Shown one piece after another: positions 15,209-64,000 of a DNA stretch of 64,000 nt (positions within the stretch are counted from its first letter, which is position 1; the number at the start of each line of letters is the position of its first letter). The DNA is taken from positions 43,646,689 to 43,710,688 of the forward strand of contig NC_030381.2 of NCBI RefSeq assembly GCF_001625215.2. The letters are read 5' to 3'. The translations under genes and the position numbers were made by a program. The notes below the pieces were generated by a model. The model had not been told where the DNA came from. It did no database searches and saw only the letters and a list, made by a program, of their open reading frames with translations. Source of the DNA: Daucus carota subsp. sativus. Its lineage: Eukaryota; Streptophyta; Magnoliopsida; Apiales; Apiaceae.

Positions 15209-16509
15209 AGGGATGAGGGTTAATTATCAAGTTGGTCACTGAAGTGAGCTTAATGTATCAAGTTGGTCACTGAACTCAAAACGGTATCAAGATAGTCACT
15301 AAAGTCACCATAAATGTCTAGGGATGGGCATTAATCCCGACCCGCCCGATCCCCACCCGATCCCCGCACCGAATGGTGCGGGGATTCGGGGATTTTTTCG
15401 GGTACGGGCCGGGGAACGGGGATGACTTTGAAAAAAAATCGGGGATCGGGTCGGGTACGGTTTTTCACATTCCCCCGGCCCGATCCCCGAACCTCGACCC
15501 GATTTCCCCCGATTGTCGACCCGATCCTCGGCCCGATTATTATATTATAGATTATATGTTATATATAATATAAATATATACATATATATATTGTAATCAT
15601 TTATTAACATGTTTATATACCTCTCTAGGTCAACTTCAGTCATGGATTTTCACATGTTTATAATCATTTATTAACATATTTATATACCTCTTTAATATAA
15701 TTAAATTTATTGAAATAAATTTTAATATTTATTCTTATTAATATAATCTTAAAACTAAAATGGTCATAATTAAATCATTAAAGATTTGTTTATTAAAATG
15801 ATTAGGTATTAATTAGACATATTAGAAACTAATCGTAATTATGAATTTAAGTATTTAAATAGAAATTTTAGTTTAAATTAAAAATACCCGAATCACCGCG
15901 GGTATCCCCGAATCTCGATTGGGCCGGGGATGAGGATCGAAAAATAATCCCCGATGGGGATCGGGTCGGGGATGGGGATTGAGTTTGGATTCGGGGATCG
16001 GGGCCGGGTATAGCAATCCCCGACCCGAAGGGGCCCGATGCCCATCCCTATAAATGTCAAACAAGTACCTTGAAATATGAGTTTAAGTAGTAAAAATATT
16101 ATTTATAAAATTTTACACATTTTTTTTAAATGTTACCACAACCAACTAAAAAGTTATGACTTCTAGTAATTAAAATAATATATTTATATTTTATCAAGTT
16201 TATTTATTATTTATATTTTATTAAATAGTTATTTTTTTGTTTTAATTAAAAATAAATAATAAATAAACTTGATAAAATCTAAATATATTATCATAAATAT
16301 TAGAAGTCATAAACTTTTACTTGGTTTTGGTAACATTCAAAAATAATGTGTAAAAGTTTATAAATAATATTTTTAGTGCTTGAACTTATATTTCAAGATA
16401 CCTGCTTGATATTTATGGCCACTTCAGTGACCATCTTGATACCGTTTTGAGTTCAGTGACCAATTTGATACATCAAGCCCACTTCAGTGACCAACTAGAT
16501 AATTAACCC
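15209..16509. mobile_element. Mutator-like foldback element, interrupted by a hAT insertion
   Basis: The perfect 9-bp duplication ACAAAACAT flanks the unit (15200-15208 and 16510-16518), as for Mutator-like elements. The left arm begins AGGGATGAGGGTTAATTATC; the right arm, complemented, begins GGGTTAATTATCTAG, so the outermost 8 bp are missing or extra on one side. The arms pair through TCAAGTTGGTCACTGAA, CTCAAAACGGTATCAAGAT, the CCATAAAT block and on into the AT-rich middle, making almost the whole unit a foldback. Without the nested hAT (15319-16058 including one duplication copy) it is about 560 bp. No transposase. Confidence 0.85.
15319..16050. mobile_element. hAT-type element nested in the foldback, 732 bp
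   Basis: Terminal inverted repeats TAGGGATGGGCA and TGCCCATCCCTA, with the perfect 8-bp duplication TAAATGTC at 15311-15318 and 16051-16058. Subterminal ends are packed with GGGGATCGGG and its complement; the centre is AT-rich and non-coding. The same family recurs at 50655-51298. Several apparent ORFs here (Arg/Pro-rich) are translations of the GC-rich subterminal repeats. Confidence 0.92.
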
Positions 16510-18342: not shown

Positions 18343-19256
18343 TTATTACTTAATCGAACCTTAAACTGAAACCTATGCGGTGGTTTGAGGAAGGACACTC
18401 TTTTGTTAGAAACTTATCATTCGTGATTTGATTTCTTTCTATTAGACTTCGGCACATTACCCCTCCCTTTGGCACGAGTTTGTCTTGCCGGGGAATAAAA
18501 GCCAGCGACTGCTAGTTTAAATAGACACATTACATACTCTGTACGCAACAGAGACATTAATATCTAAAGAAAATAATTACTCAACGGAATATGATATGTG
18601 GTGGACACCGAACTCAGTTTTATGTTTTTGTAGAACTATCATAATTTTCCAATTGACTTTTAAATATAATATAACGGAATGTCTAACCTCCTGTGCCCTT
18701 AGACACAGGATAAGTCATAATTAATGTGATTAACAATTTTTTTCTTTGCATAGTTATTAGTGTATATACAAAAACATTCAAAACTTTATTAAATATTATC
18801 TATACATATACTTTTGATTTATTTTTCAAATTTTAAATTTATTAATAAAATATTATTTTATTTCAAAAAAAATGTGAAAACATAGATTTATTATTTTTGT
18901 CATATTTTATATAAATTTTTTTAATATATTTCATCCCACAAATAATATTGAGCCCCCCTGCATATACACTATTTTTCTAATTAAAATTAATATTCAAACT
19001 AAAACCAGCCAATTTTATATTTAGTAGTAAATTTATGATTTTTTATTATTTTAACAATAATAAAAAAATATAATTGACTAAAATTATAATACAATACATG
19101 AATAGATAAATATCAAATTAACTTGGTAAGTAAGCATTTGATTTTTCTAGTTAGTAATTAATGCGTTGCTGACTTGCTGCGTGCTGTATTGCATGATCTA
19201 CAGAAAACTAGGGCCAATAAATGTTCTAAACACAGGTTAGACAAGCCCATAATATA
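18343..19256. other. AT-rich spacer, no gene
   Basis: No ORF of note. Text around 18690-18715 (CTCCTGTGCCCTTAGACACAG) is repeat-like but unbounded. Confidence 0.4.
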
Positions 19257-20824
19257 AGAGGTAATTGCATATCGCACCCCCTAAGTATCATTCAAAAACG
19301 ATAGAGTACCGATACTTTAAGAAACTCAACTCGCACCCTTTATCTTTACTTCTCAAAACCGAGATGCACCCCCTGCCGTTAACTTCCGTTAACTCGGTGC
19401 ACTCCGTTAAATCATTATATATAAAATTGCAATTCGGACCCCCTAACTTACGTTCAAAAACGATATGGTATCCATATTTTTGAAAACTCGAATCGCACCA
19501 TCTATTTTTACATCTCAGGAACGATACGCACCCCCTCCGTTAAATTCCGCTACCTTCGTTAAAATTCTCCCCCGTCTCAATTTACATGGCCCTTTTGCTT
19601 TTTGAGGAGTTAAATTGACTAATTTTTTACTAACTATTTGAAAATATGTGTTTATTATTTTAGAAAATAGAAAGTTACATATTAAAATAGACTAGATTTA
19701 ATTTTTGATGATATTTTTTTAAATTTTTTTGATCAATTTTTCCAAACAAAATAATTAAAATTTATATATAAATTTTAATCAATAGATAAATTTATGTATT
19801 ATTTATAATAAATATCACATGATATTTATTTTTTATATTTAAAATAGTGTATATTAAGTACCTAATACACATGTCACTAAAAATTTAAAATCATTCAATA
19901 TGTAAAATCATTTTGACTTGGGGATAACTTAATTAAACAAAAATTTTAAAAAAAAATATCATCAAAAAGTAAATCTAGTCTATTTGTTTTCGCAAATAAT
20001 ACAGGGTCCGAATTTCACAAATAATAGAGGTAATTGCAATTCGGATCCCCTACTATTTACCTCTATTAAAATAGGCTAGATTTACTTTTTGATTAAACGA
20101 CAAGATGCTTATATAAAAAGCACATTATACCTAACTTACGTTCAAAAACGATATTATACCTGTACTTTTGGAAACCCAAATCTCACCACCTATCTTTACA
20201 ACGATACGCACCTCCTCCGTTGAATTCCGTTACCTTCCGTTAAAATACTCCTCCGTCTCAATTTACATGTCCCTTGTCAAATTGATTAATTTTTGACCAA
20301 CTATTAAAAAAATATTTATTTATTATTTTAGGAAATAGAAAGTTACATATTAAAATATACTTTCTAGCCTGTTTTAATAGAGGTATCTAGTCTATTTTAA
20401 TATGTAAATTTCTATTTTCTAAAATAATAAATACATATTTTCAAATAGTTGGTAAAAAATTAGTCAATTTAACTCCTCAAAAAGCAAAAGGGACATGTAA
20501 ATTGAGACGGGGGAGAATTTTAACGGAAGGTAGCGGAATTTAACGGAGGGAGTGCGTATCGTTCCTGAGATGTAAAAATAGGTGGTTCGATTCGAGTTTT
20601 CAAAAATATGGATACAATATCGTTTTTGAACGTAAGTTAGGGGGTCCGAATTGCAATTATATATATACTGACTTAACGGAGTGCACTGAGTTAACGGAAG
20701 TTAACGGCAGGGGGTGCATATCGGTTTTGAGAAGTAAAGATAAGGGGTGCGAGTTGAGTTTCTTAAAGTATCGGTACTCTATCGTTTTTGAACAATACTT
20801 AGGGGGTGCGATATGCGATTACCT
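19257..20824. mobile_element. Large composite foldback element, 1.57 kb
   Basis: Flanked by the perfect 9-bp duplication CATAATATA (19248-19256 and 20825-20833). The left arm starts AGAGGTAATTGCATATCGCA; the right arm complemented starts AGGTAATCGCATATCGCA. About 450 bp of each arm pair almost base for base, through CTCAACTCGCACCC, CCGTTAACTTCCGTTAACTC, ACGTTCAAAAACGATAT and CGTCTCAATTTACATG. A third, shorter copy of the arm text lies in the centre (about 20026-20270), so the unit was built by nesting. The 9-bp duplication suggests Mutator-type mobilisation. No coding capacity. Confidence 0.85.
20248..20515. mobile_element. Stowaway-like unit inside the foldback
   Basis: CTCCTCCGTCTCAATTTACA at the left faces TGTAAATTGAGACGGGGGAG at the right, with TA before the left end and a decayed AA after the right end. 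It forms part of the right arm of the larger foldback, and related text occurs in the left arm from about 19567. Confidence 0.5.
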
Positions 20825-20833
20825 CATAATATA

Positions 20834-48595: not shown

Positions 48596-50211
48596 TTAAT
48601 TAGCAACTCCAGCTGCTACACCGGTATCAACCATCTCAGTTTGTGCATTGCTTCCACTGAACACTTTAGCAATCTTCTTGGTGGGCACCAATGGGAGATA
48701 GGAAGAGACCTTGTAGCCTTCCTTTGCTGTGCGCTGAACAGTCTCATTGTACTTCTCAGAGCAGTAGGCTGCTGTTGGTACAACAACTTGAGCAACCCGG
48801 GGAAAGAGAGGGAGTTGGTTGAGTGAGTGCCAAGTTGAGGCTGCGTATTGTTCAGCCACTGGCTCGTACTTCGTATACATCCCCTTGGCAGCAGGCTCCC
48901 ACTTGGCATAAGCAGTTTTGGCGAGACCAGAGGCAGTATCCACCAGGTTGACATTCTTTACTTCAGAAACCACAGCTCGAGCTGTGGCAGGAGCATTCTG
49001 AGCTGCAGACAAGGCACGGCTTGATAGCTGTTTCACAGCAGGGGGAACATGACTGTCTAACTTGTGAACAGATTCATCAACCTGCATAAATATGTATCAG
49101 AGAATATTAAACATATTACTATATTAGACTCTGCAGCAAACAGAAATAGAAAAGAGAAAACATTTGACTACCTAATTCATTATACTCTTAACTAAATCAA
49201 AATTTCTTCCAATTCAATCTAAGTCTTATAAACCCTCTTACTATCAACAACATTTTCTACAATAAACAATAGTCCACATATCTTTGGCATTCTAATAGCA
49301 ACAACGAAATTTCCGTGGAAGCATGACTAACCTTCCGGTCAGCTAACTTCAAGAGCTCACTGGGAACATCATGGTACTTTTCATAGACAGGAGCAACAAC
49401 AGTCTTAACAGTTCCTTCAACAGTCTGAACCCCATTCTTTAGGGGGCCTGAATTTTCTTTTGCGTAAGTATAAGCTCTTAAAGCATACAGAACAGTGTGG
49501 AGTGCTGCAACTTGAACAAACTCAAGGTACTTTAGCTTCTCTTCTTCAGTTTGAACCTGAATAATACAAAAACAATTCACAAATCAGTCTTCCAATAACT
49601 ATGAAAACAAAACACAAGGAAATACACAATACACAATATATATGATCTCATCTATCTGCTCCCTTCATTGCCAGTGGATCTTAGCGACCAAAAAAATAAA
49701 TTAAAACCGTTATATAAGTTTATTAATTACATTCTAAAACAAGTACCCAAACAGATACTTTTTCCAAAATTACAAGCATACAAGAGAATCCAACACAGAA
49801 TATTTTCATCCCCAAAAAATATATATCGCTATAACACAGCAGAGAGCATACCACATTTATTCCATCAAATGTCATTGCATACACAATACAGATAATTTGC
49901 GTAAATGCTACTCCATTAAACCTAACTGTATATATACCACAATAAGGGTAAAGACTTTTTCCTAATTGCTGTTAAACTCCTCTTCACGGCAGGAACGCTC
50001 CAATCAAATTTACGGGTTCAGTTTTTTATCATCAAGAACATTACTTATCATTTGTACATTTAACAGAAATTCATCAGCAAACAACGAATACATCAATAAA
50101 TAATTAAACAATCACAAAGCTAAACCCTAGCTGATCAATCGAACCTAAAAAGATAAAAATTATAAATAAATACAGTACCTTTTGTTGATTTGAGTCGTTA
50201 ATTTGGGCCAT
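48596..50211 (-). CDS. REF/SRPP-family protein (rubber elongation factor / small rubber particle-like), 247 aa
   Basis: Lipid-droplet-associated protein family, known as LDAP/SRP in plants that make no rubber, linked to stress tolerance and lipid storage. Exons on the minus strand: 50211-50179 ([11 protein letters not shown]), 49556-49332 and 49081-48596; all junctions in phase 0. Family motifs: [81 protein letters not shown] and [16 protein letters not shown]. Length is usual for the family. Intron 1 (49557-50178) contains position 49921, where a second copy of exon 1 plus promoter in this window is joined to a retrotransposon LTR. Exon 1 and upstream are therefore present twice (again at 63513-63545). 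Confidence 0.93.
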
Positions 50212-50666
50212 AATCGCAAATCTTCAACGAAATAATCTCTGAATCGAAAACTAAAAAATTGAATTGCGTGGAGTGCTCGAGGTTTAACGAAAATAATACA
50301 GAAAGATGCGAAAACGATGAGTTGTATGTATAGATTAAAATAGAAAATACCGTATATATAGGCAGGCGTTGTAGATGTAGATAACCGGCACGGAAGTCGA
50401 GAAATGGGGTGAAAGCGTGTAGATGAACGTTGACGTCGGTTAAGCTTTGGTAGTTGAATACTTCGTCACTAAGAATATAGAAGTTTCTAGGAGGCGCGTG
50501 AGGGAGGCATGGATGGATTGCGACATAAATTGGGTTTTGCAAGGTGGCATAACGGTATTGGATGGACGCCCAACAAATCTAATTAGATAATTTTCCATTT
50601 TAGATTTATGGACAGCCTGCTCTTCATTCAATTTACTTTACTAAGTATAATTACTAGAGATGGGCA
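49921..50666. repeat. 746-bp direct duplication, left copy
   Basis: Same as 63255-64000 at a constant offset of 13,334 with no indel, and no difference seen by eye. It covers part of intron 1, exon 1 and the promoter of the REF/SRPP gene, and the first 12 bp of a hAT element. The right copy is cut by the window end, so the repeat may be longer. Confidence 0.95.
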
Positions 50667-51298
50667 TTCACCCGCCCCGCTCGACCCCGATCCGATCCCC
50701 GCCCCGTTCGGGTTGGGGATTCGGGGAATTTTTCAAGGGCGGGGCGGGGATCGGGGAAAGTTCTATAAAAAATTCGGGGATCGGGGCGGGGTCGGGGATT
50801 GGTGTCTCCCCACCCCGATCCCCGACCCCGATTATATATATATATATATATAATGCTAAATATATTATTTAGAATAGATAAGCTTTATAATATAATTAAA
50901 ATTAAAATATAATCTTTATTTTTATTGATTGATTATAAATATATTATAATATAATATATTTAATAATATTAAAATGTCGTTTAATTATATTATAAATCAA
51001 TTGTAATATGATTTGATGTTCAAATATAAGATAATATTATTTTATTAGTATATTAGGAGTTAGTAGTTTGTTTTTTTATTAAAAAATATATTATATATTA
51101 TAAATTATTATGTTTTTATTAAAAATAAAATTTCCCCGACTCCCCGCGGGGATCCCCGTTCCCCATTCGGGGCGGGGATCGGGGAGAAAAATAATCCCCG
51201 TTCGGGGTTCGGGGCGGGGTCGGGGAGGGGTCATGAATTCGGGGATCGGGTTCGGGGATAGCACTCCCCGCCCCGAAGTGCCCCCGTGCCCATCCCTA
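50655..51298. mobile_element. hAT-type element, 644 bp, same family as 15319-16050
   Basis: Ends TAGAGATGGGCA and TGCCCATCCCTA, with the perfect 8-bp duplication ATAATTAC at 50647-50654 and 51299-51306. Subterminal GGGGATCGGGG repeats, AT-rich centre, no transposase. The Gly/Arg/Pro-rich ORFs here are translations of the GC-rich ends. It lies in the 5' flank of the REF/SRPP gene. Confidence 0.93.
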
Positions 51299-51305
51299 AT
51301 AATTA

Positions 51306-51617
51306 CTCCCTCCGTCCCAGTCATTTCTATACAGTTTCGTTTTTGGGATTTCTCATCATTTCTATACATTCCTAAAATAGCAACTTTTAATAATATAAAA
51401 AACTATTACACCCACTATTTTCTCCCACTATCTCCATTCTATAATAATAAAAACACTATTACACCCACTACTTTCCTCCACTATCTCAAATCTATTATTG
51501 AAAATAAATAGGTCCCACCACTTTACCCACTTTTCATCCAATTTTACTCATTTCTTACACTTTTTCTTGGTCTCCGTGTCCAATCCCAATGTATATTATT
51601 CATTGGGACGGAGGGAG
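51306..51617. mobile_element. Stowaway-like MITE abutting the hAT element
   Basis: CTCCCTCCGTCCCAGTCATT at the left and CATTGGGACGGAGGGAG at the right, flanked by TA (51304-51305, 51618-51619). Its first base and its TA lie within the 8-bp hAT duplication, so the hAT element landed exactly on the MITE's left edge. Confidence 0.82.
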
Positions 51618-51619
51618 TA

Positions 51620-53937
51620 TGTTTTATTTAGATTCAAACAAATATAATTTAAAATGTATAAATGATCTATGTCAACTATAATTAATACTAAAATTTGTGA
51701 AAATAATTAATTTGATGATTGGGTCAAAATATTAAAATAAGTGATTGAAAAATCAAGGAGTATAAGATATAAGAAGTATTGTATAAAAATTAAATTAATA
51801 TTTATTAGATAATATTAAATAAATTTATATGTATAATCAATGTTAAGAAATAAGGAGATAGAATTAGTTGAACAATAGAATCAAAGATGAGAAAAATTAG
51901 TGGAGGAAAATAAAAATATATAATATAATACTTAATAACGAGATTTAATTAGAAATGACGTATAAGAATATTGATGTCATCCATTTAGTGAGAGGTTGAT
52001 AATTTAAAAATAACATTGAAATCATGAAGTTAAGTCTGGTTCAATACAATAAAAATTTGTTGAAATTTTTTCTTGATTGTATTCACAAATAATAGACAAA
52101 GATATAAAGATATTTTAAAGTGAACATAAGATAATTATACAAGAGCTTTCAAAATTTCAAGTGGATTTATCCACCAAGTAGATTTTATAACTTTTTTGTG
52201 TTTGAATAACACAACTACCTATAAGAAAACCAAGAAAAGGTTTTTACAAGATATTTCTCTAACAGTTCTAAGTTCGATGTTTCTTTTCGTATAAAATAGA
52301 TACTACTGTAAAATGAATTACAATACTTGCTTATATATCCTGAGTTTATATTTTTTTTCTTTACAGAAATAATTAACTTCTTATTAATAATAAAAACCAC
52401 AACCCTACTCAAATATTTGCTTACATATTCTTGAAAATATTTTTCTTGTTGACAAATTTATTTTTCGAATACTCTCGTGTAGATACAAATAGCAAACTCC
52501 ATTTAATAAACTAAGTCTACATTAAGCTTGACTTTCAAAATAGATCATATTGTTCTGATCGATCAACGATGTGATTGTTGTCTTTTTTTCTCTTATGTAC
52601 ATGTCAACCGATGTCAATTAGACATAGATAAATCAATCATCAGTCGTTGATAGCTTACTTGACTAGCCGTTGTAGATTCTTTTATTATCAATTGATAGTT
52701 TGTCTTTATTAGTTGTTGAAGGGTTAAAAAATTAATTGATAAAACTTTATTTATATTTCATTGATAACTTAGATTTAGTTGTTGATATTCACTTTACTTA
52801 AGTAATTATCATGACTTAAAAAATTTTATAATTTGACATGTCAACTACACATCTATTGATAAATCAAAAAAGTATATTAGTTGATCAACTTATTCAGTTA
52901 ATTACTAACTTGTAAAGTACCTATTTTGTTATAATACCACATCAGTTGATGATAATTGATCAATGAATACTACATATAATATGCGATCAATTGATTGGCT
53001 GGATTTACTTAAGCAAAATTACGTTAATTATATTGACTAATAATCAAGACCAACATATTTCCAACAACTATATTTGTAAGTTCATTACTTATTCCTGGAC
53101 CTTCGTCTTTCCTATAAATAACTCGTATTCGAAGGTATTTTTTCCACCCCTTAGAGGCCTTACATATAATCTTTAAATTACTCCCTTAATGTTCTCGTAT
53201 TTCGAGAGTTTGTAGAATTTTTAATTTTTTTTATATTTTGTGATTTTATGAAAAGTACATTTTTTTCCTAGAAAATCAAATGTTCGATCTTGAAAACCAA
53301 ACTCACTGGTCGTAGCAAGTTTGGCTCAGTTGGAGTCCTACAATAGCTTCGTTCGACGAATCGATCAATGGAGGGATAACTTATACCACCTTATTCGGGT
53401 GATTTTAAATGTTGGGGTTGCTCCTGGAATCTGGGGCCTGGTCGACAAGTTTGCTTGATCTAAGACATCAATTGATTCTTTACTCGGTTGGCGAGCTTCG
53501 CTAGGTTAATGAGCGACTTGATTCTTGGCCATCATGTTAATCGGGAGGCAGGGTGTTTTGGTGACCTGGTCAGCTATTTTGATTTATGATTGGCAAACTC
53601 TTGTGTGTACAAATTATTTTTTATCCAAAATTTCGACGATTATGTATATTTTTCAAGTTGAACAATGTGAAATATATTATTATGTAGAAGATGTTCTGTT
53701 TATGGTACATATACAGTTTCAAGATCTCCCATAAAATAGTGATCCATATATAATTTTTCTTTGTATATATATATATATATATAATTTAATAATAAATATT
53801 CAAATAAAACTTATTGTTATATAACTCTATTAAAATATGTTATTCTATTAAAATTTGGTTGTGAAAAAATAAATAATAAATTTAAAAAGAACATTAAAAA
53901 CAATCTCGTCCGTTTATAAACTACTGTCCGTTTAGTC
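51620..53937. other. AT-rich spacer up to the truncated retrotransposon
   Basis: No gene. Between 52550 and 53000 short TTGAT/ATCAA words recur. 53280-53560 is less AT-rich and may be old repeat. No gag, protease, primer-binding site or 5' LTR is visible before pol, and an (AT)n run lies at about 53765-53782. The junction with element sequence is near 53930; in-frame stops lie just upstream of the pol ATG. Confidence 0.5.
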
Positions 53938-56900
53938 ATGGATGCCCGGATCCAACAAATGATCTCGGCACAAGAATTGACTAAGGTCGAAGCTGCGGTC
54001 GAAACCGAGTCTGTCCTGATCGAGAAAGACAACCCGGCAAGGAAAGTCAAAATTGGAAAAGGCCTGAATACCGTTTTTAAAGAAGAACTCATCCAATTAC
54101 TTCGGAGCTACGCAGATGTCTTTGCCTGGAGCCCGGACGACATGCCCGGGTTGGACGAGTCACTAGCAATGCACAGCCTGGATGTGGACCCCAAGAAGAA
54201 ACCAGTCAGACAAAAACGAAGAAATTTCGCACCAGAAAGGCAGAAGGCAATAGATGAGGAAGTTGGCAAATTGATAAAGGCGGATATCATCTGCGAGATC
54301 AAATACCCGGAGTGGCTAGCTAATGTAGTCATGGTAAAGAAAGCAAACGGAAAGTGGAGGATGTGTGTTGACTACACAGATCTGAACGCGGCATGCCCAA
54401 AAGACCCTTATCCTTTACCAAGCATAGACCAGCTTATTGATGCCACATCAGGACACCTGATGTTAAGCTTTATGGATGCCTTCTCCGGGTACAACCAGGT
54501 TAAGATGAACCCAGCAGACATAGCCAAAACAGCCTTCATAACCCACCGGGCAGTGTATGCCTACAAACTGATGCCTTTCGGGTTAAGGAACGCCGGGTCC
54601 ACATATCAGAAAGCCATGAATGAAATTTTCAAAGATCAACTTGGAAGGAATTTGGAATGCTACGTCGACGACATCATCTCCAAATCCACTTCGGTCCCGG
54701 GTCACATTTCTGATCTCAAAGAATGTTTTGAAAACATGAGAAGGACTAAGCTAAAGCTCAACCCGGACAAGTGCACCTTTGGAGTAGAGGCTGGAAAGTT
54801 TTTGGGCTTTATGGTAAGCAACCGGGGTATCGAGGCCAACCCGGAGAAGATCAAAGCTGTACAAGAGATGCAACCACCCCGGACCCAGAGGGAGGTCCAA
54901 AAACTAGCAGGGTCCTTAGCGGCACTCCGAAGGTTTGTCTCCAAACTCGCTGAAAGATGTCTACCATTCTTTGAGTTGTTGAAAGGGGCAAAAAATCAGA
55001 AGTTAGTAGAATGGAGCCCGGATTGCCAAAGAGCTCTTGACGAAATAAAAGCATACCTGTCCAAACCCCCGATCCTGACAAAAGCCTTACCCGGAGAACC
55101 TCTCTATCTATACCTGTCAGCCGGACCCTTGGCCGTCGGGGCAGCCCTAATCAGGGAAGAAGCCGGACAGCAGAAGCCTGTCTACTATGTCAGCCAGGTC
55201 CTCAAAGATGCGGAGACCAGATACCCCAACTTAGAGAAATTTGCTTTCGCACTGATCACCGCATCCAGAAAGCTCAGACATTACTTCCAAGGAAGAGAAA
55301 TCAGGATCGTCACAGACCAACCTTTGAGGAAAATCATCCACAAGCCAGACATCTCCGGGAGACTAGTAAACTGGGCGATCGAACTTAGCCAGTTCAGCCT
55401 AACCTTCCTACCCCGGACAGCAGTCAAAGCCCAGGTCCTGGCAGACTTTGTAGTGGAATGCAACTTCCCAGAAAACCAGTCAACTCCTATGGAAACCGAA
55501 CCGGAAGCTCCAGTAGAACCCAACCCGGAGTCTTGGATACTCCATGTTGACGGCTCCTCAACAACCGAAAGGTCAGGAGCCGGGCTAATCCTGAAGAGCC
55601 CGGACGGGTTCACCATCAAAACAGCAATCTCTTTCAACTTCCCAGCAACCAACAATCAAGCAGAGTATGAAGCCCTATTAGCGGGATTGAAGTTGGTCCG
55701 GACCTTGTCAATCCGGAACCTCACCATCTACAGTGATTCCCAGATCGTGGTCAGACAGACCAATGGGGAGTACCTTGCCAAAGACCCGATCCTGACCAAG
55801 TATCAAGCCTTGGTGAAAAACTACCTTACCCTGATCCCCGGATGCAAGATCTTGCAAGTAAACAGGGAAGAAAATGCTGAAGCAGACAACCTCTCCAGGT
55901 TGGTCCAAAATTCAGCAGACCTGGATAGCTCAGTCTATTTCGAGGAATTGCACAAGCCAACAATAGATCATGAAGAAATCTTTGAAATCAACAACGACCC
56001 TACCTGGATGACTCCCCTGATCAACTACATAGAAAAGGGAGAGTTACCCGGAGACAAAGGAAAAGCTCAAAGACTGAAGGCTAAGGCAGCCAAATTTTTT
56101 GTTGAGGGGGGGATCCTATTCCGACGAACTTACTCAGCCCCGATCCTGAAATGTATCGGTCCAGAAGAGTCCGAGTACTGTCTAAGAGAAGTCCACGAAG
56201 GAATATGTGGAGACCACATGTCGGCCAAGAGCTTAGCCCACAAAATCATCAGACAGGGATACTACTGGCCGACTATCCACCAGGATGCAATGGAATTTGT
56301 GAAAAGATGCAAGAACTGTCAACTGTTCAGCAACGTGCCCCGGGTAAGCCCTGTCCTACCTTCTTCAGTTTTATCCCCAATCCCGTTTGCCGTATGGGGG
56401 ATAGACATCATGGGACCTTTTCCCCGAGCTAAGGGAGACCTAAGATACCTGCTTGTCTCCATTGATTATATGACTAAGTGGGTCGAGGCCAAGGCAATGA
56501 GAACAATCAATCAACAAGACGTCATCCGGTTCATGGACAACATCCTGATGAGATTCGGGTTACCAAGAGTCCTGGTCTCAGATAATGGACCCCAGTTCAT
56601 AGGGTCGGATTTTGAAAGCTACCTGGCTGAAAGAGGCATCAAGCACAAGAAGTCTTCAGTCGCCTATCCTCAAGGAAATGGCCAGGTAGAGGTCACCAAC
56701 CGGATCCTCCTGAGAGGAATTGAAAAGAGGCTAGAAGAAAGCAAGAACAAATGGCCAGAAGAATTACCACATGTTCTATGGTCATACCGAACAAGTCCCC
56801 GGACAAGCACCGGAGAAACCCCTTTCAAATTGGCCTATGGAACTGAGGCAATGCTCCCAATCGAAGTCGGGTCACCTTCCCACAGAGCGATCAACTTTGA

Positions 56901-57234
56901 TGAAATTGCGAATGAAGAAGGACTCCGGGTCAACCTAGACTTGGTAGACGAGGTCCGAGACCAAGCAGTCGCAAAGATGGAAAAGTACAAAGAGAAGACC
57001 CGGGATCACTTCAGCAAAAAATCCCGGGTTAAGAATTTTCAAACAGGAGACCTGGTCCTACGAGACACCGAAGCCTCTGATCCAACCAACACTGGCAAGT
57101 TGATGCCTAAGTGGGAAGGCCCCTACAAAGTCAAAAAAGTCCTAAGGCCGGGCACCTACAAATTGGAGCATATGGACGGGTCAGAAGTACCCAACACCTG
57201 GCATGGTCTTAGGTTGAGGAAGTTCTATCAGTAA
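53938..57234 (+). CDS. pol: Ty3/gypsy pol polyprotein, Tat-type (RT, RNase H, second RNase H, integrase), 5' truncated
   Basis: Retrotransposon polyprotein of 1098 aa with no stop, so the copy is young. Order: protease-RT linker (PGLDESLAMHSL); RT (about 90-300, WRMCVDYTDLN, LMPFGLRNAGSTYQKAMN, catalytic YVDD at 242-245); first RNase H, degenerate; a second, plant-type RNase H (about 533-655, LHVDGSSTTERSGAG, NNQAEYEALLAGL, IYSDSQ, EENAEADNLSRL), the mark of the Tat clade; integrase zinc finger (H, H, CKNC, about 745-795); integrase core with D in WGIDIMGPF, D in VSDNGPQF and E in GQVEVTNR. The tail (GPYKVKKVLRPGTYKL) has no chromodomain. Gag and protease are absent. The listed start is the first ATG, not a true protein start. 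Confidence 0.93.
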   Translation: MDARIQQMISAQELTKVEAAVETESVLIEKDNPARKVKIGKGLNTVFKEELIQLLRSYADVFAWSPDDMPGLDESLAMHSLDVDPKKKPVRQKRRNFAPERQKAIDEEVGKLIKADIICEIKYPEWLANVVMVKKANGKWRMCVDYTDLNAACPKDPYPLPSIDQLIDATSGHLMLSFMDAFSGYNQVKMNPADIAKTAFITHRAVYAYKLMPFGLRNAGSTYQKAMNEIFKDQLGRNLECYVDDIISKSTSVPGHISDLKECFENMRRTKLKLNPDKCTFGVEAGKFLGFMVSNRGIEANPEKIKAVQEMQPPRTQREVQKLAGSLAALRRFVSKLAERCLPFFELLKGAKNQKLVEWSPDCQRALDEIKAYLSKPPILTKALPGEPLYLYLSAGPLAVGAALIREEAGQQKPVYYVSQVLKDAETRYPNLEKFAFALITASRKLRHYFQGREIRIVTDQPLRKIIHKPDISGRLVNWAIELSQFSLTFLPRTAVKAQVLADFVVECNFPENQSTPMETEPEAPVEPNPESWILHVDGSSTTERSGAGLILKSPDGFTIKTAISFNFPATNNQAEYEALLAGLKLVRTLSIRNLTIYSDSQIVVRQTNGEYLAKDPILTKYQALVKNYLTLIPGCKILQVNREENAEADNLSRLVQNSADLDSSVYFEELHKPTIDHEEIFEINNDPTWMTPLINYIEKGELPGDKGKAQRLKAKAAKFFVEGGILFRRTYSAPILKCIGPEESEYCLREVHEGICGDHMSAKSLAHKIIRQGYYWPTIHQDAMEFVKRCKNCQLFSNVPRVSPVLPSSVLSPIPFAVWGIDIMGPFPRAKGDLRYLLVSIDYMTKWVEAKAMRTINQQDVIRFMDNILMRFGLPRVLVSDNGPQFIGSDFESYLAERGIKHKKSSVAYPQGNGQVEVTNRILLRGIEKRLEESKNKWPEELPHVLWSYRTSPRTSTGETPFKLAYGTEAMLPIEVGSPSHRAINFDEIANEEGLRVNLDLVDEVRDQAVAKMEKYKEKTRDHFSKKSRVKNFQTGDLVLRDTEASDPTNTGKLMPKWEGPYKVKKVLRPGTYKLEHMDGSEVPNTWHGLRLRKFYQ

Positions 57235-57414
57235 AATCAACGAGAAGGAAGGACCCTAGAAGACAGCAATATATCCCTAAAAAGCAATCATGTACTTTTG
57301 ATCATTATCAAAGCTGTATAATCTTCTGAATATCAATGAAGACAATGAAGTATTTTGCTACTAATGAATTTCACCTATTATTTTACTTAGAAAATTTCTA
57401 AGGCAACCAAAAAC

Positions 57415-58385
57415 ATATAAAGCAAACAACCCGGGTAAGAATTGCCCGGGTCCACCCATTTCACTTGCTTGGAAAAAATTTCTAAGTACAAACATGTACA
57501 AAACAATCAACCCGGGTAAGCATTGCCCGGGTCCATCCATTTCGTCTGCTTGGAAAAAATTTCTAAGTACAAACATATACAAAACAATCAACCCGGGTAA
57601 GCATTGCCCGGGTCCATCCATTTCGTCTGCTTGGAAAAAATTTCTAAGTACAAACATATACAAAACAATCAACCCGGGTAAGAATTGCCCGGGTCCATCC
57701 ATTTCATTTGCTTGGAAAAAATTTTCTAAGTACAAACATGTACAAAACAATCAACCCGGGTAAGAATTGCCCGGGTCCATCCATTTCATTTGCTTGGAAA
57801 AAATTTCTAAGTACAAACATGTACAAAACAATCAACCCGGGTAAGAATTGCCCGGGTCCATCCATTTCATTTGTCTGGAAAAAATTTCTAAGTACAAACA
57901 TGTACAAAACAATCAACCCGGGTAAGCATTGCCCGGGTCCATCCATTTCGTTTGCTTTGAAAAAAAAAATTTCTAAGTACAAACATGCACGTTTTATTAA
58001 ACTTGGAAAAGTTCTAAGCATAAAAAGCAAAAGAAAACATACAACCCGGGTGGACGTTGCCCGGGTCCATTCAACTTGGAAAATTTCTAAGTATAAAAAG
58101 CCAAAGAAAACAACCAACCCGGGAAGACATACCCGGGTCCATCCACTCAACAATTTGACTTGGAAAAATTCTAAGTATAAAAGCCAAGAAAAAACAGCCA
58201 ACTCGGGAAATACCTACCCGGGTCCATCTGCGCGATCATTTACTTAGAAAAATTTTCTAAGTACACAACTATGTAAGCAACCAACCCGGGCAGATGTTAC
58301 CCGGATCCACCTGATTCACATTACTTAGAAAAATTTCTGAGTACAAAACTATCATAAGCAATCAACCCGGGTACGCATTACCCGA
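57415..58385. repeat. About twelve tandem units of 73-83 bp with CCCGGG hairpins
   Basis: Units read: an AACCCGGGTAAGCATTGCC-type stem (CCCGGG, 9-nt loop, CCCGGG), then GTCCATCCATTTCGTTTGC, a run of A, and TTTCTAAGTACAAACATGTA. CCCGGG-stem starts are near 57430, 57510, 57591, 57671, 57753, 57836, 57917, 58045, 58117, 58202, 58286 and 58365. The first seven are near-identical; later ones diverge. ORFs on both strands across the array are repeat translations. It lies downstream of pol and at the 3' side of the antisense gene. Confidence 0.9.
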
Positions 58386-58579
58386 GTACACCTGTATAAA
58401 ACAATATACAAAGCAAACGAAACCATTCATAGGCAAACATGACAAGAGAATATTTCATAGGAAATAGCAAGAGCAACAATACATAAACCAGGATCTACAT
58501 AGACCCCGAACAAATATCCAAATCCAAGCAGAGAATTCAGCCTTACAAATGATTGTGTTTCAAAACAAGGGAAAAGAAA

Positions 58580-61126
58580 CTAAGCAGAGGGAATATCATC
58601 AGCAGGAGGATCATCGGCAGGAGTCTCATCGGCCAGGGGTTCCGAGTCGGCAGAGGAATCAGAATCCACCTCCTGATTCGGGTCAACATAAGGCTCGGGC
58701 TCCCCCTCGCCTGCAGAAATCTTGTTCTTTGCAGCAATATAAAGGTCGATAAAACTCTGGGCATTGGCGGCCGGGTCCGTCTTGATGTGCTTTTCAGCCA
58801 CTGTCCAACAGCGCATGACTTCGGCGGCTGCAGCCTTCGCCAAAGCATCTGCATAGGCTGTGGATTTCTGAAACTCGGCAACGACCTCTTCAGGAGCCCT
58901 CCGGGTTTCCAGCTGCAACTTCAGATCCGCAATCTCCTTCTCTAACCCGGACACCTTCTTCTCAGCCGCATCCGCCCGGACCTCAGCATCCTTAACCCTC
59001 TGCCCGAGCTCAGCCTCCTTAAGGGCCTCAGCTTCCTTGACCCGGGTCGCCATACTTGACTCCAAGACCTCCCTGGCCGACCTCTCCATATCCCGACTCT
59101 TCTCCAACTTTGCAACCTGGGCCAAAGTGGACGCTGAAAACTCCCTCTCTTTCTTCAACTGGTTCAAAGCATTAGTATTGAACCCGGCCAGACGGCCACC
59201 AAGCTGAAAACCAGGGTTTCAGAACAAATCAGAAAATAAAAAATGAGAGAAGGAGGCACAAACAATACAAAGGGAGAAAAACAAAAAGAAAGAGAGTCAA
59301 AACATTACCTGGCCCCAAAGATTCCCAATCTCTTTGAAATTCTCCACCAGACCCTCTTCGCCCATCACTTCCCAGTCCTGGTCCGAAGGAAGCTCGGACA
59401 TCAACCCTATAACTTTCTTCACCGAGTATTTCCCAAACTCGGGCTTCTTCACCTCAGATACCAGCCCGGTCTCGCCCTCAGCATCCACATCCACATCAAG
59501 GACCTCAATGGCCGATTTCCCCGGGTCTGCACTTCCAACCCCAACAGCTTTCTTCACATGGGAACTTGGCTTTCTTTTCTTCAACCTCGGCTGAAGATCC
59601 GGACTCTCTACCCCCAGCTGGTCAGCGCCAAGCTCCGGATCCTCTACCTCCAGGATAGGATCCGGGTTGGCACTGGAGGTACCCGTACCCTCTGTCTCCT
59701 GCCGAGATGACCCGGATTCAGCTTTCTTTTTCGCGGACTTAGATTTTGGAGCCGGCTTAGGAAGGACGTGAGCCGCCCCCAAGCTCTTCAGATGGGCAGC
59801 AAATGAATCACTTGCCATTTCTTTCCACAAATCCGGGTCGAAGTATGGCAAACCTGAAACAAGAAAGAAGCACCCGGGTCAGAGACAACATAACATATAA
59901 CCAAGACAAAAATTGGAACAACAAACAGGTAAATTCCTAAGTACAAACAACAGAGACAACCCGGGTGAAAAACACTACTTACAGCCATATCCATGCAACT
60001 TATCGTGTTGCATAAACAAATCCCGGGTCAATTGGGACCCGAGGCAACCACAAAACTCACGCAGCTGTTCCCGGAATGCACCTGCAGCACCCGGAGCCCC
60101 AAAATCCGTTCTTACCTGCTTCTCGTCAGAAACAATGTAGGGCATAAAAGCCAGGTCCAAACCTTTCAGCATAAGAACCTCCCCATTCCAGCCCTTCAAA
60201 GAGCTTTGATGCATGACCGGGCTGACGAAACCGGCTCCCAAACCAAGCTCTTTAGAGCGAAAACGCAGCTCATAAAGGGGCTTCACCCCGGACTTTTTGA
60301 ATTGGAACAGCATATGGAAAAGTTTGAGAGTCGGATAATAATTCTTCTTATTACAAGCAGCCAGAAACCAGGTCATCCACTTAATGGCATTGGGAGTGAG
60401 CTGCATCGGGGAACACTTGAACTCGTATTTACACAAATGCTTAAAAAAGACGTGCCACCTCGGATTCCACCCGGATCTGAGATGCTCCATCCATACTGGA
60501 ACAAAACCATCAGCCGGGCGATGATATATTCTCTCCCCGGGCTCAGGCCATCTCCACTCAACGTCAGAAGGGAGCTGGAATGCCGCCCGGATCATCTTAT
60601 CTGCTACGTCCTCGGGCATCTCCTTTATGTGATCTCTGAGGGGAAAAGGAGCCCGGGCAACAGACAACAACCTAAACCTATGATCAAAATCCCCTTCGTC
60701 GTAAGGAGCCAACGGACCACCCGGGTGTTTGGATCGATAGAACCCGGCCATATTGGTGTAAAAACTCTTCTCCTCGACAAGAGGGGCCTTGACGATAAAG
60801 AAGGATTTAGAATCACACCACATGCCTTCCGGAGACATGATCACCTGCCGCCCAACAGCCTCCTTAACTTTTTGAAACTCAGAAATCACTCCAGAAGACG
60901 AAGCCTCCTTTTCCGACATTTTAGCCCGGGCTCGCGCGGCAAGGGTCTGAACTTCGTCGGATTCAGTATCGCTAGAGAACTCCCCGGGGACGGCCGAGTA
61001 AGCAACAATCTCTTGTCTTGGCCTTTTAGAGAGGCGGACCCGGGCACGATGAGCAAGGGCGTGAAACCCGTCTGATTCACTATCACTGGAAGACTCTTCA
61101 AAAACCACCGAAGGGATCCGGACCAT
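58580..61126 (-). CDS. Spliced antisense gene carried by the retrotransposon, about 770 aa
   Basis: Coding exons on the minus strand: 61126-59983, 59853-59309 and 59203-58580; GT-AG junctions keep frame and give 771 codons with stop. The start MVRIPSVVFEESSSDSESDG lies just after a 5'UTR intron acceptor (61131-61132). The first exon is acidic, then carries a globular part (LRSGWNPRWHVFFKHLCKYE, LTPNAIKWMTWFLAACNKKN) resembling the 'putative gypsy-type transposon / plant transposon protein' domain annotated in many plant genomes. The second is Lys/Ser/Pro-rich (PKPAPKSKSAKKKAESGSS). The third is a long coiled coil (KVSGLEKEIADLKLQLETRR) with an acidic tail. Three long open exons without stops argue for selection. 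Function unknown; antisense ORFs between pol and the 3' LTR are known in Tat/Grande-type elements. Confidence 0.8.
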
Positions 61127-61130
61127 AGAC

Positions 61131-61982
61131 CTAAATAAAGAAGCAATCCGGGTCAATTTTAAAAGAAGAAAATTTACACAAGTTGTTGCAAGTTTTATTT
61201 AGGTCCGGATCCCAGCCTAATTCTATGTGGAAGACATACCAAAGGGGAAGCAAAAAACAAAGTACAACACGAAAGAGCTACCCGGGTCCAACACACACTA
61301 CAACAATACACAAACCCTCACAAAGAATGAAGACTACCACAACACCACTAAAGCTACCCGGATACACCAGGAAAACACACAAAAATCCTAAGCGTGCCTA
61401 CCCGGCCCTCTTCTTCTTTCAAATCCATGTATGGCTCCTATATGTACACCCGGGTCCTATATGCCTACCACGGCACAACCAAACTCCAACAAAATCCCCA
61501 AGCACGAAAACAAAGTAACCCAAAACCCCTACCCGGACCTAAAGTACATACCCGGGCGAATACACTCGCGACTTGCAAACATCCAAAACAGCCATGTCCT
61601 AAATCTACCCATCGGGTATAACTATGTGACCCGGGTCCAGTTCAAATCACTAAAGGATCCCAAACGCCACAAACATTTTCACAGAAATTTCAAAACAAAA
61701 CCAAGAATCAAAACTCAAACCCCCAGCCGTTATACACTCACAAATACATATATACACAAAAGTTCAAGAGCGCAATCGACCCAAAACCCAGACATCGACA
61801 CAAAAACAAAACCACACGCAAGACGAAACACAAGAGACGAACAAACATAACCAAAATCAGATTCACACAGCAAAATAACGATGGAAAGAACAACCAAAAG
61901 CAAACATTTTAAAAGAGGAACTCATGCAAATAGCAGCAGCACGATGAAAGGAAAAGAGCGAAGAAAGAGAAAGGAAACTTAC
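61131..61982 (-). other. 5'UTR intron of the antisense gene
   Basis: On the minus strand the donor CCG|GTAAGTTTCC ends the leader exon at 61983 and the acceptor TTTATTTAG|GTCT lies 4 bases before the ATG. The intron is about 852 bp and rich in ACCCGGGT and AACC words. The leader exon upstream is CT-rich (TTCTTCTCCG). Confidence 0.65.
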
Positions 61983-62124
61983 CGGAATTAGAGAACGGAA
62001 ACGGAGAAGAAGAACCGACGGTGAAAAAGACTTCGGCGAGAAGAAACAACCAACAAAGCACTCCAAAGCAGTTGTGAAGAAAAAATGGCAAGAATGAAAA
62101 ATGAAGGAGTTAAAAGGGAGGACT

Positions 62125-62170
62125 GTATTTATAACCGTACTGCTAGGCCACGTGGCAATCTCCTATTGGC
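62125..62170 (-). promoter_or_regulatory. Core promoter of the antisense gene: CCAAT, G-box, TATA
   Basis: On the minus strand, in order: CCAAT (62165-62169), a G-box CACGTG (62149-62154) and a TATA box TTATAAATAC (62125-62134), followed after about 30 bp by the presumed leader. Spacing is that of a normal plant promoter. It lies inside the element, 430 bp before the 3' LTR, and points away from it. Confidence 0.65.
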
Positions 62171-62585
62171 TGTATAACAATTATTACAGCCGTTTACAAT
62201 TTACTTCTCCTCAAAAGACGTGTCGGTGCAACTCCCGAGACACGCCACCCGTCTGAATTCCACACATCTCGACCGTTTCGCCATCCCTCGACCCGGACTA
62301 CTGCCTTACCCGGATCCGCAAAAACGGAGGAATAGCTGGCCGATGAGAACCACTCAACCCGGGCAGGATGGCGAAAGCGTAAAACCTCCGCCCCCACCCG
62401 GGTCTACTCAGAATGAGGGAGCAAACAACTCATATATCCACCCGGACTGGTGGGCAACAGCAAACAACTCACATATCTACCCGGACCGGGGGGCAACAAC
62501 AAACCTCTATGTCTACCCGGATCCACTCGGCCAAAGCAACAAAAGCAGGAATCCCACTCTACTCCCTCACATAGAAGATCTATAT

Positions 62586-62603
62586 AAGGGAGTGGGGGGC
62601 AAA
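62586..62603 (+). promoter_or_regulatory. Polypurine tract (plus-strand primer site)
   Basis: AAGGGAGTGGGGGGCAAA directly precedes the TG that opens the 3' LTR. This is the usual position and composition of a retrotransposon polypurine tract. Confidence 0.8.
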
Positions 62604-62866
62604 TGATATGGAGTAACCCGGTTAACCATGGTCCTCGGAGAGAGCGCAGTATCCCAGACCCTACTCGAGTACATTCACCCGGGTTAGGAATAGGACCCGG
62701 GTACCCCCTAAACACACCCCTCGACCGGGGTCCAATCTTGTACCAGCCGACACTTGCTGCACAAGGCACAGACTGACACAATAAAGACAAATGTAACGGT
62801 CAACTACTGGCGATAGAGACAAGCCAGGGAACATTCCAAAATACTACTCCTACGCTGACACCTGGA

Positions 62867-62896
62867 CACGTGTAGGGGATCGAACCCCTACACGTG
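62867..62896. promoter_or_regulatory. Perfect inverted repeat with paired G-boxes in the LTR
   Basis: CACGTGTAGGGG (62867-62878), a 6-nt spacer, and CCCCTACACGTG (62885-62896). Each arm has a CACGTG G-box, the site of bZIP and bHLH factors. It lies about 50-75 bp upstream of the LTR TATA box, where an enhancer would act. Confidence 0.7.
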
Positions 62897-62942
62897 TAGG
62901 ACCAGGATCCAGGTACGCACCCTTAAACCCTAATCCTTGGCC

Positions 62943-62950
62943 TATAAATA
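62943..62950 (+). promoter_or_regulatory. LTR TATA box
   Basis: TATAAATA in the context GGCCTATAAATAGACC, within the U3 part of the 3' LTR, in the plus orientation of the element. Confidence 0.7.
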
Positions 62951-63254
62951 GACCAGGGATCAAGAGTCTAAGGGTAATTCTCTCTACACTCATTTTGCAC
63001 ACACTTACACTCAGCATATACTCAAACACTCTCAGCCACCAGCAACCACCAGCCACACACCTTCACCCACCACACATAGATAACACTTTCTCTAGTCTTT
63101 ATCCTTCCGAAACCTACGCTTACTCTCACGCCGGAGGCGCTTTGGGGCAAAACCCCCCCGCCGGCGTTGTTTTGTAGGCTCCCATCCAGCAGCTACACCG
63201 CAGAACCGTCATCCACGGCGGAGGAAGGACCGGGATCGGAGATTGGCGTTATCA

Positions 63255-64000
63255 CCTAACTGTATATATACCACAATAAGGGTAAAGACTTTTTCCTAAT
63301 TGCTGTTAAACTCCTCTTCACGGCAGGAACGCTCCAATCAAATTTACGGGTTCAGTTTTTTATCATCAAGAACATTACTTATCATTTGTACATTTAACAG
63401 AAATTCATCAGCAAACAACGAATACATCAATAAATAATTAAACAATCACAAAGCTAAACCCTAGCTGATCAATCGAACCTAAAAAGATAAAAATTATAAA
63501 TAAATACAGTACCTTTTGTTGATTTGAGTCGTTAATTTGGGCCATAATCGCAAATCTTCAACGAAATAATCTCTGAATCGAAAACTAAAAAATTGAATTG
63601 CGTGGAGTGCTCGAGGTTTAACGAAAATAATACAGAAAGATGCGAAAACGATGAGTTGTATGTATAGATTAAAATAGAAAATACCGTATATATAGGCAGG
63701 CGTTGTAGATGTAGATAACCGGCACGGAAGTCGAGAAATGGGGTGAAAGCGTGTAGATGAACGTTGACGTCGGTTAAGCTTTGGTAGTTGAATACTTCGT
63801 CACTAAGAATATAGAAGTTTCTAGGAGGCGCGTGAGGGAGGCATGGATGGATTGCGACATAAATTGGGTTTTGCAAGGTGGCATAACGGTATTGGATGGA
63901 CGCCCAACAAATCTAATTAGATAATTTTCCATTTTAGATTTATGGACAGCCTGCTCTTCATTCAATTTACTTTACTAAGTATAATTACTAGAGATGGGCA
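63255..64000. repeat. 746-bp direct duplication, right copy
   Basis: Repeats 49921-50666 with no indel. It begins at the first base after the 3' LTR. On the minus strand it contains REF/SRPP exon 1 (63545-63513) and its promoter, and it ends with the first 12 bp of the hAT element (63989-64000), preceded by the same ATAATTAC. The rest is beyond the window. Confidence 0.95.
63513..63545 (-). CDS. REF/SRPP exon 1, second copy (partial gene)
   Basis: Encodes [11 protein letters not shown] followed by the same GTACTG donor as the copy at 50211-50179. Downstream of it (lower coordinates) the intron runs into a retrotransposon LTR at 63254, so exons 2 and 3 do not follow within the normal intron distance. 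If this is a real second locus, its transcript would have to splice across the retrotransposon or end in it. If it is the other haplotype, it marks an allele with an intronic insertion. Confidence 0.75.

What the first reader, a model, noticed from the sequence alone, without database searches (positions are those of the whole stretch)
49921..64000. Empty-site and filled-site versions of one retrotransposon insertion in a single contig
Seen: 63255-64000 repeats 49921-50666 without indels, and the repeat starts at the first base after the 3' LTR (…GTTATCA|cctaac). The left copy runs uninterrupted through the same point (attaaacctaac). So the left copy reads as the pre-insertion site in REF/SRPP intron 1 and the right copy as the right flank of an insertion there, with cctaa the probable target-site copy. 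The matching left flank and the 5' half of the element are missing. Inference: either two haplotypes (with and without insertion) were chained in assembly, or a tandem duplication was followed by deletion with a breakpoint near 53.93 kb.
Basis: partly seen in the sequence, partly recalled or inferred. Interest (0 to 1): 0.8.

Follow-up and report, generated by a model that had tools for sequence, protein, structure and literature searches.

The report
Half-finished retrotransposon insertion duplicating 4 kb
In a plant chromosome, a jumping gene that lacks its front part sits between two perfect 4-kilobase copies of the DNA between two genes, which is best explained by an insertion in which only one end was joined properly and the cell repaired the other end with a second copy of its own DNA.

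Summary
The repeat is real and longer than reported: window 49921-53941 equals 63255-67275 (last 3.3 kb outside the window), 4,021/4,021 bases. Between the copies lie 9,313 bp of a Ty3/gypsy, Retand-like element (53942-63254) with a correct 3' LTR end but without 5' LTR and gag. Six fetched intact relatives confirm the LTR end; 6 of 6 have 5-bp target duplications. The other junction (53941|53942) joins host DNA to pol with 1 bp shared, not a place where an assembler would overlap two haplotypes. The tested flanks (1.0 and 1.2 kb) are single-copy; a paralogous REF/SRPP-capping-protein pair on C6 has one intergenic region.

This is the anatomy of 'aberrant' retroviral integration in cultured cells: one integrase-made end, one often truncated end, up to kilobases of host DNA duplicated (PMC5041404). 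I prefer a single one-ended integration giving a 4-kb 'target-site duplication' over haplotype chaining or duplication plus deletion. REF/SRPP keeps exon 1 and promoter; its neighbour keeps its upstream DNA. An assembly artefact (about 20%) cannot be excluded without reads. Plausible, recent, moderately interesting: a plant example of a known kind.

The parts
48596..49096 (-). REF/SRPP gene, 3' coding part (limits are those of the open frame; exon start not mapped)
   Evidence: Pfam REF PF05755, E 6.4e-49
49332..49556 (-). REF/SRPP exon 2
   Evidence: Pfam REF PF05755, E 1.3e-34 on the ORF 49257-49583; acceptor and donor
49557..50178 (-). REF/SRPP intron 1; integration point between 49920 and 49921
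   Evidence: splice sites read; breakpoint
50179..50211 (-). REF/SRPP exon 1 coding part ([11 protein letters not shown]), left copy, belongs to the complete gene
49921..53941 (.). Left copy (A) of the 4,021-bp host duplication: part of REF/SRPP intron 1, exon 1, promoter and intergenic DNA
53941..53942 (.). Aberrant junction: host DNA joined to the element; 1 bp (G) shared; host ATG at 53938 falls in frame with pol
53942..63254 (+). 5'-truncated Ty3/gypsy (Retand-like) element, 9,313 bp; lacks 5' LTR and gag (about 3.6 kb)
   Evidence: gag in the matching part of one relative
53942..57234 (+). pol remnant, open reading frame with RT, RNase H and integrase
   Evidence: Pfam RVT_1 6.1e-29, RT_RNaseH_2 6.8e-21, rve 3.1e-13; best solved relative Ty3 polyprotein 7q5b, E 2.2e-71
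57391..57987 (+). array of ~81-bp tandem repeats after pol
   Evidence: self comparison
58580..61198 (-). antisense reading frames (three long ORFs: 58580-59218, 59297-59878, 59975-61198); Transposase_28 trace in the last
   Evidence: Transposase_28 E 2.4e-5, 24.9 bits against cut-off 26.2; no such match in the other two
62604..63254 (+). 3' LTR, 651 bp, TGATA...TATCA, preceded by purine-rich tract GAGTGGGGGGCAAA
63255..63259 (.). CCTAA, the bases expected as 5-bp target-site duplication
   Evidence: sequence; 6 of 6 fetched relatives have perfect 5-bp duplications
63255..64000 (.). Right copy (A') of the host duplication; continues outside the window to 67275-equivalent (C1:43713963)
63513..63545 (-). 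orphan second copy of REF/SRPP exon 1 with its promoter, now pointing into the LTR

Best explanation
One aberrant integration event. The element's integrase joined the right (3' LTR) end of a cDNA to REF/SRPP intron 1 between 49920 and 49921 in the normal way. The left end was truncated just upstream of the RT domain, by incomplete reverse transcription or by trimming, and could not be joined by integrase. The cell's repair machinery joined that end to host DNA 4,021 bp to the right of the integration point (on the sister, the homologue, or by copying the flank). The result is gene - 4,021 bp - truncated element - the same 4,021 bp - neighbour gene: in effect a 4-kb target-site duplication. 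Shown: the exact repeat, the LTR end, the truncation, both junctions as assembled, the single-copy flanks. Inferred: that the integrase joining and the repair were one event, and the order of steps.
For: 4,021/4,021 identity ending exactly at the element's aberrant end. LTR end canonical and the same as in relatives. The missing part is the 5' part, which minus-strand synthesis makes last (recalled). Junction with 1 bp in common, compatible with end joining (but 44% of random joins share 1 bp or more). REF/SRPP-side and neighbour-side flanks single-copy over the 1,021 and 1,200 bp tested. C6 paralogous pair has one intergenic region. Family recently active: LTR pairs in six fetched copies 97.7-100% identical, two of six at 100%. 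Same structure described in HIV work and, as cited there, ASLV: one normal end, other end often but not always truncated, host DNA most commonly duplicated, usually 'hundreds or thousands of bp' (PMC5041404, passages, Discussion).
Against: No reads were available, so the two junctions are known from one assembly only. Zero differences in 4 kb is also what an assembly duplication would give. The short homology usually seen at aberrant ends is only 1 bp here (4 bp, GATG, if one G of a GGG run was lost), which chance explains. A later recombination between filled and empty alleles gives the same sequence.
Confidence: 0.57

Rival explanations
1. Assembly artefact: an empty haplotype ending near 53941 and a filled haplotype starting inside the element were joined in the assembly.
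For: Exactly the empty and filled versions of one site side by side; zero differences in 4,021 bp; 5' part of the element not joined here and no second copy of the REF/SRPP left flank found in the genome.
Against: No N and no shared sequence beyond 1 bp at 53941|53942, whereas overlap assemblers switch haplotypes inside homologous sequence (recalled). In 231.6 kb of this genome that I scanned, this is the only direct repeat of at least 1 kb and at least 99.9% identity (the sample is small, chosen around this family, and covers 8 loci). Two haplotypes of an outbred plant would be expected to differ in 4 kb of AT-rich DNA with microsatellites (mating system unknown).
Confidence: 0.2
2. Two real events: a normal full-length insertion, later an illegitimate exchange between the filled chromosome (broken inside the element) and the empty homologue (broken 4,021 bp to the right).
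For: Gives the identical end product; end-joining type junction; paired-LTR relatives are common (15 pairs among the 41 LTR hits compared).
Against: Needs two events and a heterozygote; exchange between sister chromatids alone would leave a complete element at the left copy, which is absent.
Confidence: 0.15
3. Tandem duplication of a larger region, then insertion into the second copy, then a deletion from the end of A into the element that removed the second gene copy and the element's 5' part.
For: Would also leave A - truncated element - A'.
Against: Three events, all within a time too short for one substitution in 4,021 bp; no second copy of the REF/SRPP or neighbour-gene flank found.
Confidence: 0.05

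Closest known systems
Aberrant one-ended retroviral integration (HIV-1 with weakened or inhibited integrase, ASLV vectors with a bad DNA end; PMC5041404, passages and Discussion read)
   Same: One canonical integrase-made end, opposite end often truncated, host DNA duplicated over hundreds to thousands of bp, usually short homology at the aberrant junction.
   Different: There recovered from experimental infections under drugs or mutations; here in a plant genome, in a Ty3/gypsy retrotransposon, with no treatment known. Homology at the junction here is only 1 bp.
HERV-K (HML-2) insertions with long target-site duplications (PMC5488345, passages read)
   Same: LTR elements flanked by long direct repeats; one, at 6p25.2, is a truncated provirus with a 111-bp duplication.
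   Different: Duplications there are up to 250 bp (450 bp estimated); here 4,021 bp. The authors also discuss a 'pseudo-TSD' rearrangement model.
Retand lineage of plant Ty3/gypsy elements (PMC11963269, passages read)
   Same: Long pol-3'LTR region with antisense ORFs, Transposase_28-like trace and tandem repeats; LTR size within the published 315-1,194 bp range.
   Different: This copy lacks 5' LTR and gag; its Transposase_28 score is just under Pfam's cut-off; lineage not tested by a tree.

Membership tests
Aberrant (one-ended) retroviral-type integration | One end joined canonically by integrase | tested here: met
   LTR ends ...TATCA at 63254, same base as relatives (12/12; 39/41), directly followed by target bases
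Aberrant (one-ended) retroviral-type integration | Other end non-canonical, often truncated | tested here: met
   element starts inside gag-pol; intact relatives continue about 3.6 kb further
Aberrant (one-ended) retroviral-type integration | Host flank duplicated over hundreds to thousands of bp, ending at the aberrant junction | tested here: met
   4,021/4,021 bp
Aberrant (one-ended) retroviral-type integration | Short homology at the aberrant junction (usual, not always) | tested here: inconclusive
   1 bp; 44% of random joins show at least 1 bp
Aberrant (one-ended) retroviral-type integration | Event arises in one integration step | not testable with these tools
   end product is the same for a later allelic exchange; needs population data
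Ty3/gypsy, Retand lineage | RT-RNaseH-integrase order in pol | tested here: met
   Pfam RVT_1 139-298, RNase H domains within 365-660, rve 822-915 of the ORF
Ty3/gypsy, Retand lineage | Antisense ORF with Transposase_28 between pol and 3' LTR | tested here: inconclusive
   antisense ORF 59975-61198, Transposase_28 24.9 bits against cut-off 26.2
Ty3/gypsy, Retand lineage | Tandem repeats after pol (about half of published elements) | tested here: met
   57391-57987
Ty3/gypsy, Retand lineage | RT placed with Retand in a tree | not tested
   no tree made
Ty3/gypsy LTR element, ordinary insertion | 5-bp target-site duplication on both sides and two LTRs | tested here: not met
   no 5' LTR, no CCTAA next to the left end; 6 of 6 fetched relatives have both

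The most novel reading that the evidence does not exclude
Failed, one-ended LTR-retrotransposon integration is a natural route by which plants duplicate kilobases of promoter DNA without breaking genes. Here it copied nearly the whole region between two divergent genes, left the gene it hit complete, made a second free-standing REF/SRPP promoter with exon 1, and placed a copy of host upstream DNA, with a host ATG in frame, in front of a surviving RT-integrase reading frame.
Probability: 0.15. Interest if true: 0.6.

Novelty: new member of a known kind. Interest (0 to 1): 0.42.

Why it matters
If the reads support it, this is a plant example of an insertion route that I know mainly from retroviruses in cell culture, present in a chromosome and still without a single mutation between the copies. 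Long flanking duplications are a signature that can be searched for in long-read plant genomes. They would show how often truncated LTR elements come from failed integration and not from later deletion, and each carries its own clock (here 4.0 kb of repeat against about 0.7 kb for the LTRs of this family). It also shows how an insertion inside a gene can spare the gene by duplicating its promoter and first exon. If it is an assembly error, it is a useful warning example.

Tried and rejected
Chance: rejected at once by 4,021 identical bases. Homologous recombination at the left junction: rejected, only 1 bp shared. Sister-chromatid exchange after a normal insertion: rejected as sole cause, because it would leave a complete element at the left copy. 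Identification of the plant: not achieved. Vigna stipulacea is unlikely: its abstract speaks of 441 Mbp in 11 chromosomes, but its results give 387.57 Mbp anchored and 441.54 Mbp as estimated size, against 441,086,747 bases here (PMC10149957, passages). Literature searches for a plant precedent (open-access library; listings of 20 of 306, 15 of 31, 15 of 155, 10 of 27 and 15 of 243 papers seen) showed none by title or start of abstract; this is not proof that none is in print.
Full report
Observation. The repeat is exact at 746 of 746 bases inside the window. The window lies at C1:43646689-43710688 of a 441-Mb genome in 11 contigs. With the next 29 kb fetched, the identity continues to 4,021 of 4,021 bases: 49921-53941 equals 63255-67275 in window numbering. 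The copies start 13,334 bp apart and enclose 9,313 bp of element, 53942-63254. The first 746 bp and the last 2,242 bp of the unit were each searched over the genome and match at 100% in two places; the second search, with 40 of 111 candidates scored, also lists 40 weaker rows of 67-78% identity.

The right end is a true LTR end. The 3' LTR is 62604-63254 (651 bp, TGATA...TATCA) after a purine tract. I fetched six relatives out of the 39 non-self places listed. In all six, both LTRs align to the same last base (12 of 12), and 6 of 6 carry perfect 5-bp target-site duplications. In a wider LTR search 39 of 41 long non-self matches end at that base; the other two end at query bases 650 and 481.

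The left end is not. Relatives continue upstream of 53942 through about 2.9 kb of internal sequence and a 5' LTR of about 0.7 kb; this copy switches to host DNA. In one relative (L039) the missing stretch encodes gag (Pfam Retrotrans_gag, E 3.9e-17); no protease domain was recognised there. The host reads ...GTCATGG then GATGG in the right copy. The relatives placed at this point (14 of 29, the plus-strand ones; my ungapped search did not reverse the 15 minus-strand loci and misplaced them) have a G before ATGCCC or ACGCCC. The junction reads ...GTCATGG then ATGCCC: one G is shared. In 20,000 random joins of the same sequences 44% share at least one base, so the microhomology says nothing beyond 'end-joining-like'. 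By chance the host ATG at 53938 is in frame with the pol remnant.

Host context. The element sits in intron 1 (49557-50178) of a REF/SRPP gene on the minus strand (Pfam REF; exon 1, exon 2 and splice sites). To the right of the second copy, on the plus strand, a gene begins with ATG at 67412, 136 bases beyond the end of the duplication; the piece that I read from its first exons matches the F-actin capping alpha family (E 7.4e-12). The duplication therefore covers almost the whole region between two divergent genes. The left copy gives REF/SRPP its exon 1 and promoter; the right copy gives the capping gene its upstream DNA and leaves an orphan REF/SRPP exon 1 whose promoter points into the LTR. 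The REF/SRPP side (48900-49920) matches at full length only here; its other five matches are partial, 81-89% identical. The capping-gene side (1,200 bp tested) is likewise single-copy, with two partial matches of 70 and 80% on C6. On C6 the paralogous pair has REF/SRPP and the capping gene about 7 kb apart with one intergenic region, which supports the single-copy state as ancestral.

Age. No substitution in 4,021 bp gives a 95% upper bound of about 29,000 to 53,000 years with recalled plant rates of 1.3e-8 and 7e-9 per site per year (computed), if no gene conversion or polishing has evened out the copies. LTR pairs of the six relatives are 97.7, 98.3, 99.86, 99.86, 100 and 100% identical, so some members of the family moved recently.

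Mechanism. In HIV-1 experiments, and in ASLV experiments cited there, when integrase joins only one end, host enzymes join the other; that end is often truncated, and the host DNA is most commonly duplicated, usually over hundreds or thousands of bp (PMC5041404, passages and Discussion). The anatomy here agrees in the normal end, the truncated end and the duplication; the junction homology is uninformative. A cDNA with a complete 3' LTR end and a missing 5' part is what incomplete minus-strand synthesis leaves (recalled). I therefore take one aberrant integration as the best account. A later exchange between filled and empty homologues cannot be told from it by sequence, but needs two events. 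Exchange between sister chromatids is excluded as sole cause because the left copy has no element at the target site.

Artefact. An assembler switching between an empty and a filled haplotype would be expected to do so inside shared sequence; here host and element meet with one shared base and no N. In 231.6 kb scanned (103.2 kb around the window, 118.4 kb around six relatives, 10 kb on C6) no other direct repeat of at least 1 kb reached 99.9% identity. The nearest is a 1,237-bp pair at 99.1% on C7. In that scan each relative was examined as two stretches; the matches of at least 300 bp between the two stretches were one LTR pair in each. The sample is small and chosen around this family, so it bounds the artefact rate only loosely. 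Without reads I leave about 20% for an assembly error.

Recurrence. Of 41 LTR hits taken from the 53 rows (40 of 381 candidates were scored there; one partial and eleven short rows were dropped before this count), 30 form 15 same-strand pairs 9-16 kb apart and 11 are unpaired within that capped list, this one included. Whether any unpaired copy has a long flanking duplication could not be tested.

Classification. The element is Ty3/gypsy by Pfam domains and by its best solved relative, the Ty3 polyprotein. The tandem repeats and antisense ORFs after pol match the Retand lineage as described in PMC11963269 (passages); the Transposase_28 match is 1.3 bits under Pfam's cut-off and no tree was made, so 'Retand-like' is as far as I go. 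Long target-site duplications of LTR elements are known from HERV-K, up to 250 bp confirmed and 450 bp estimated, one on a truncated provirus (PMC5488345, passages). Tandem LTR elements in rice explained by single insertions are described in PMC11899658 (passages). The present case is longer than those HERV-K duplications and in a plant, but of a known kind.

Noticed in passing
window 57391-57987: Array of ~81-bp tandem repeats after pol. A reference title seen in PMC11963269 names an 82-bp repeat family of Gypsy/TAT elements in Coffea, a possible hint to the plant family.
   Followed up: no
window 53938-57234: The aberrant junction puts a host ATG in frame with the open pol remnant; an in-frame stop lies at 53917. 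Probably coincidence.
   Followed up: partly
G000:C2:55869217-55889644: Five strictosidine-synthase-like hits with identical scores spaced about 5.05 kb apart: probably a recent tandem gene array.
   Followed up: no
G000:C6:30140352-30141707 and C1:36072179-36074260: LTRs of the same family starting 0.7 and 1.5 kb apart on one strand, so tandem or nested LTR structures.
   Followed up: no
L043:1032-2261 and 4792-6028: 1,237-bp direct repeat at 99.1% identity on C7, near a relative of the element; possibly the LTR pair of another element.
   Followed up: no
window 19252-19697 and 20385-20832: 448-bp inverted repeat at 95.5% identity, likely the ends of a DNA transposon or MITE-like element.
   Followed up: no
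window 50654-51302 and 15318-16053: Related repeat ends (78-79% identity) in both places, so an older small transposon probably lies inside the duplicated 4 kb.
   Followed up: no
10-kb left flank, window coordinates -6909..-6501 and -1696..-1288: 409-bp direct repeat at 100% identity, 5.2 kb apart, possibly the LTR pair of another very young element.
   Followed up: no
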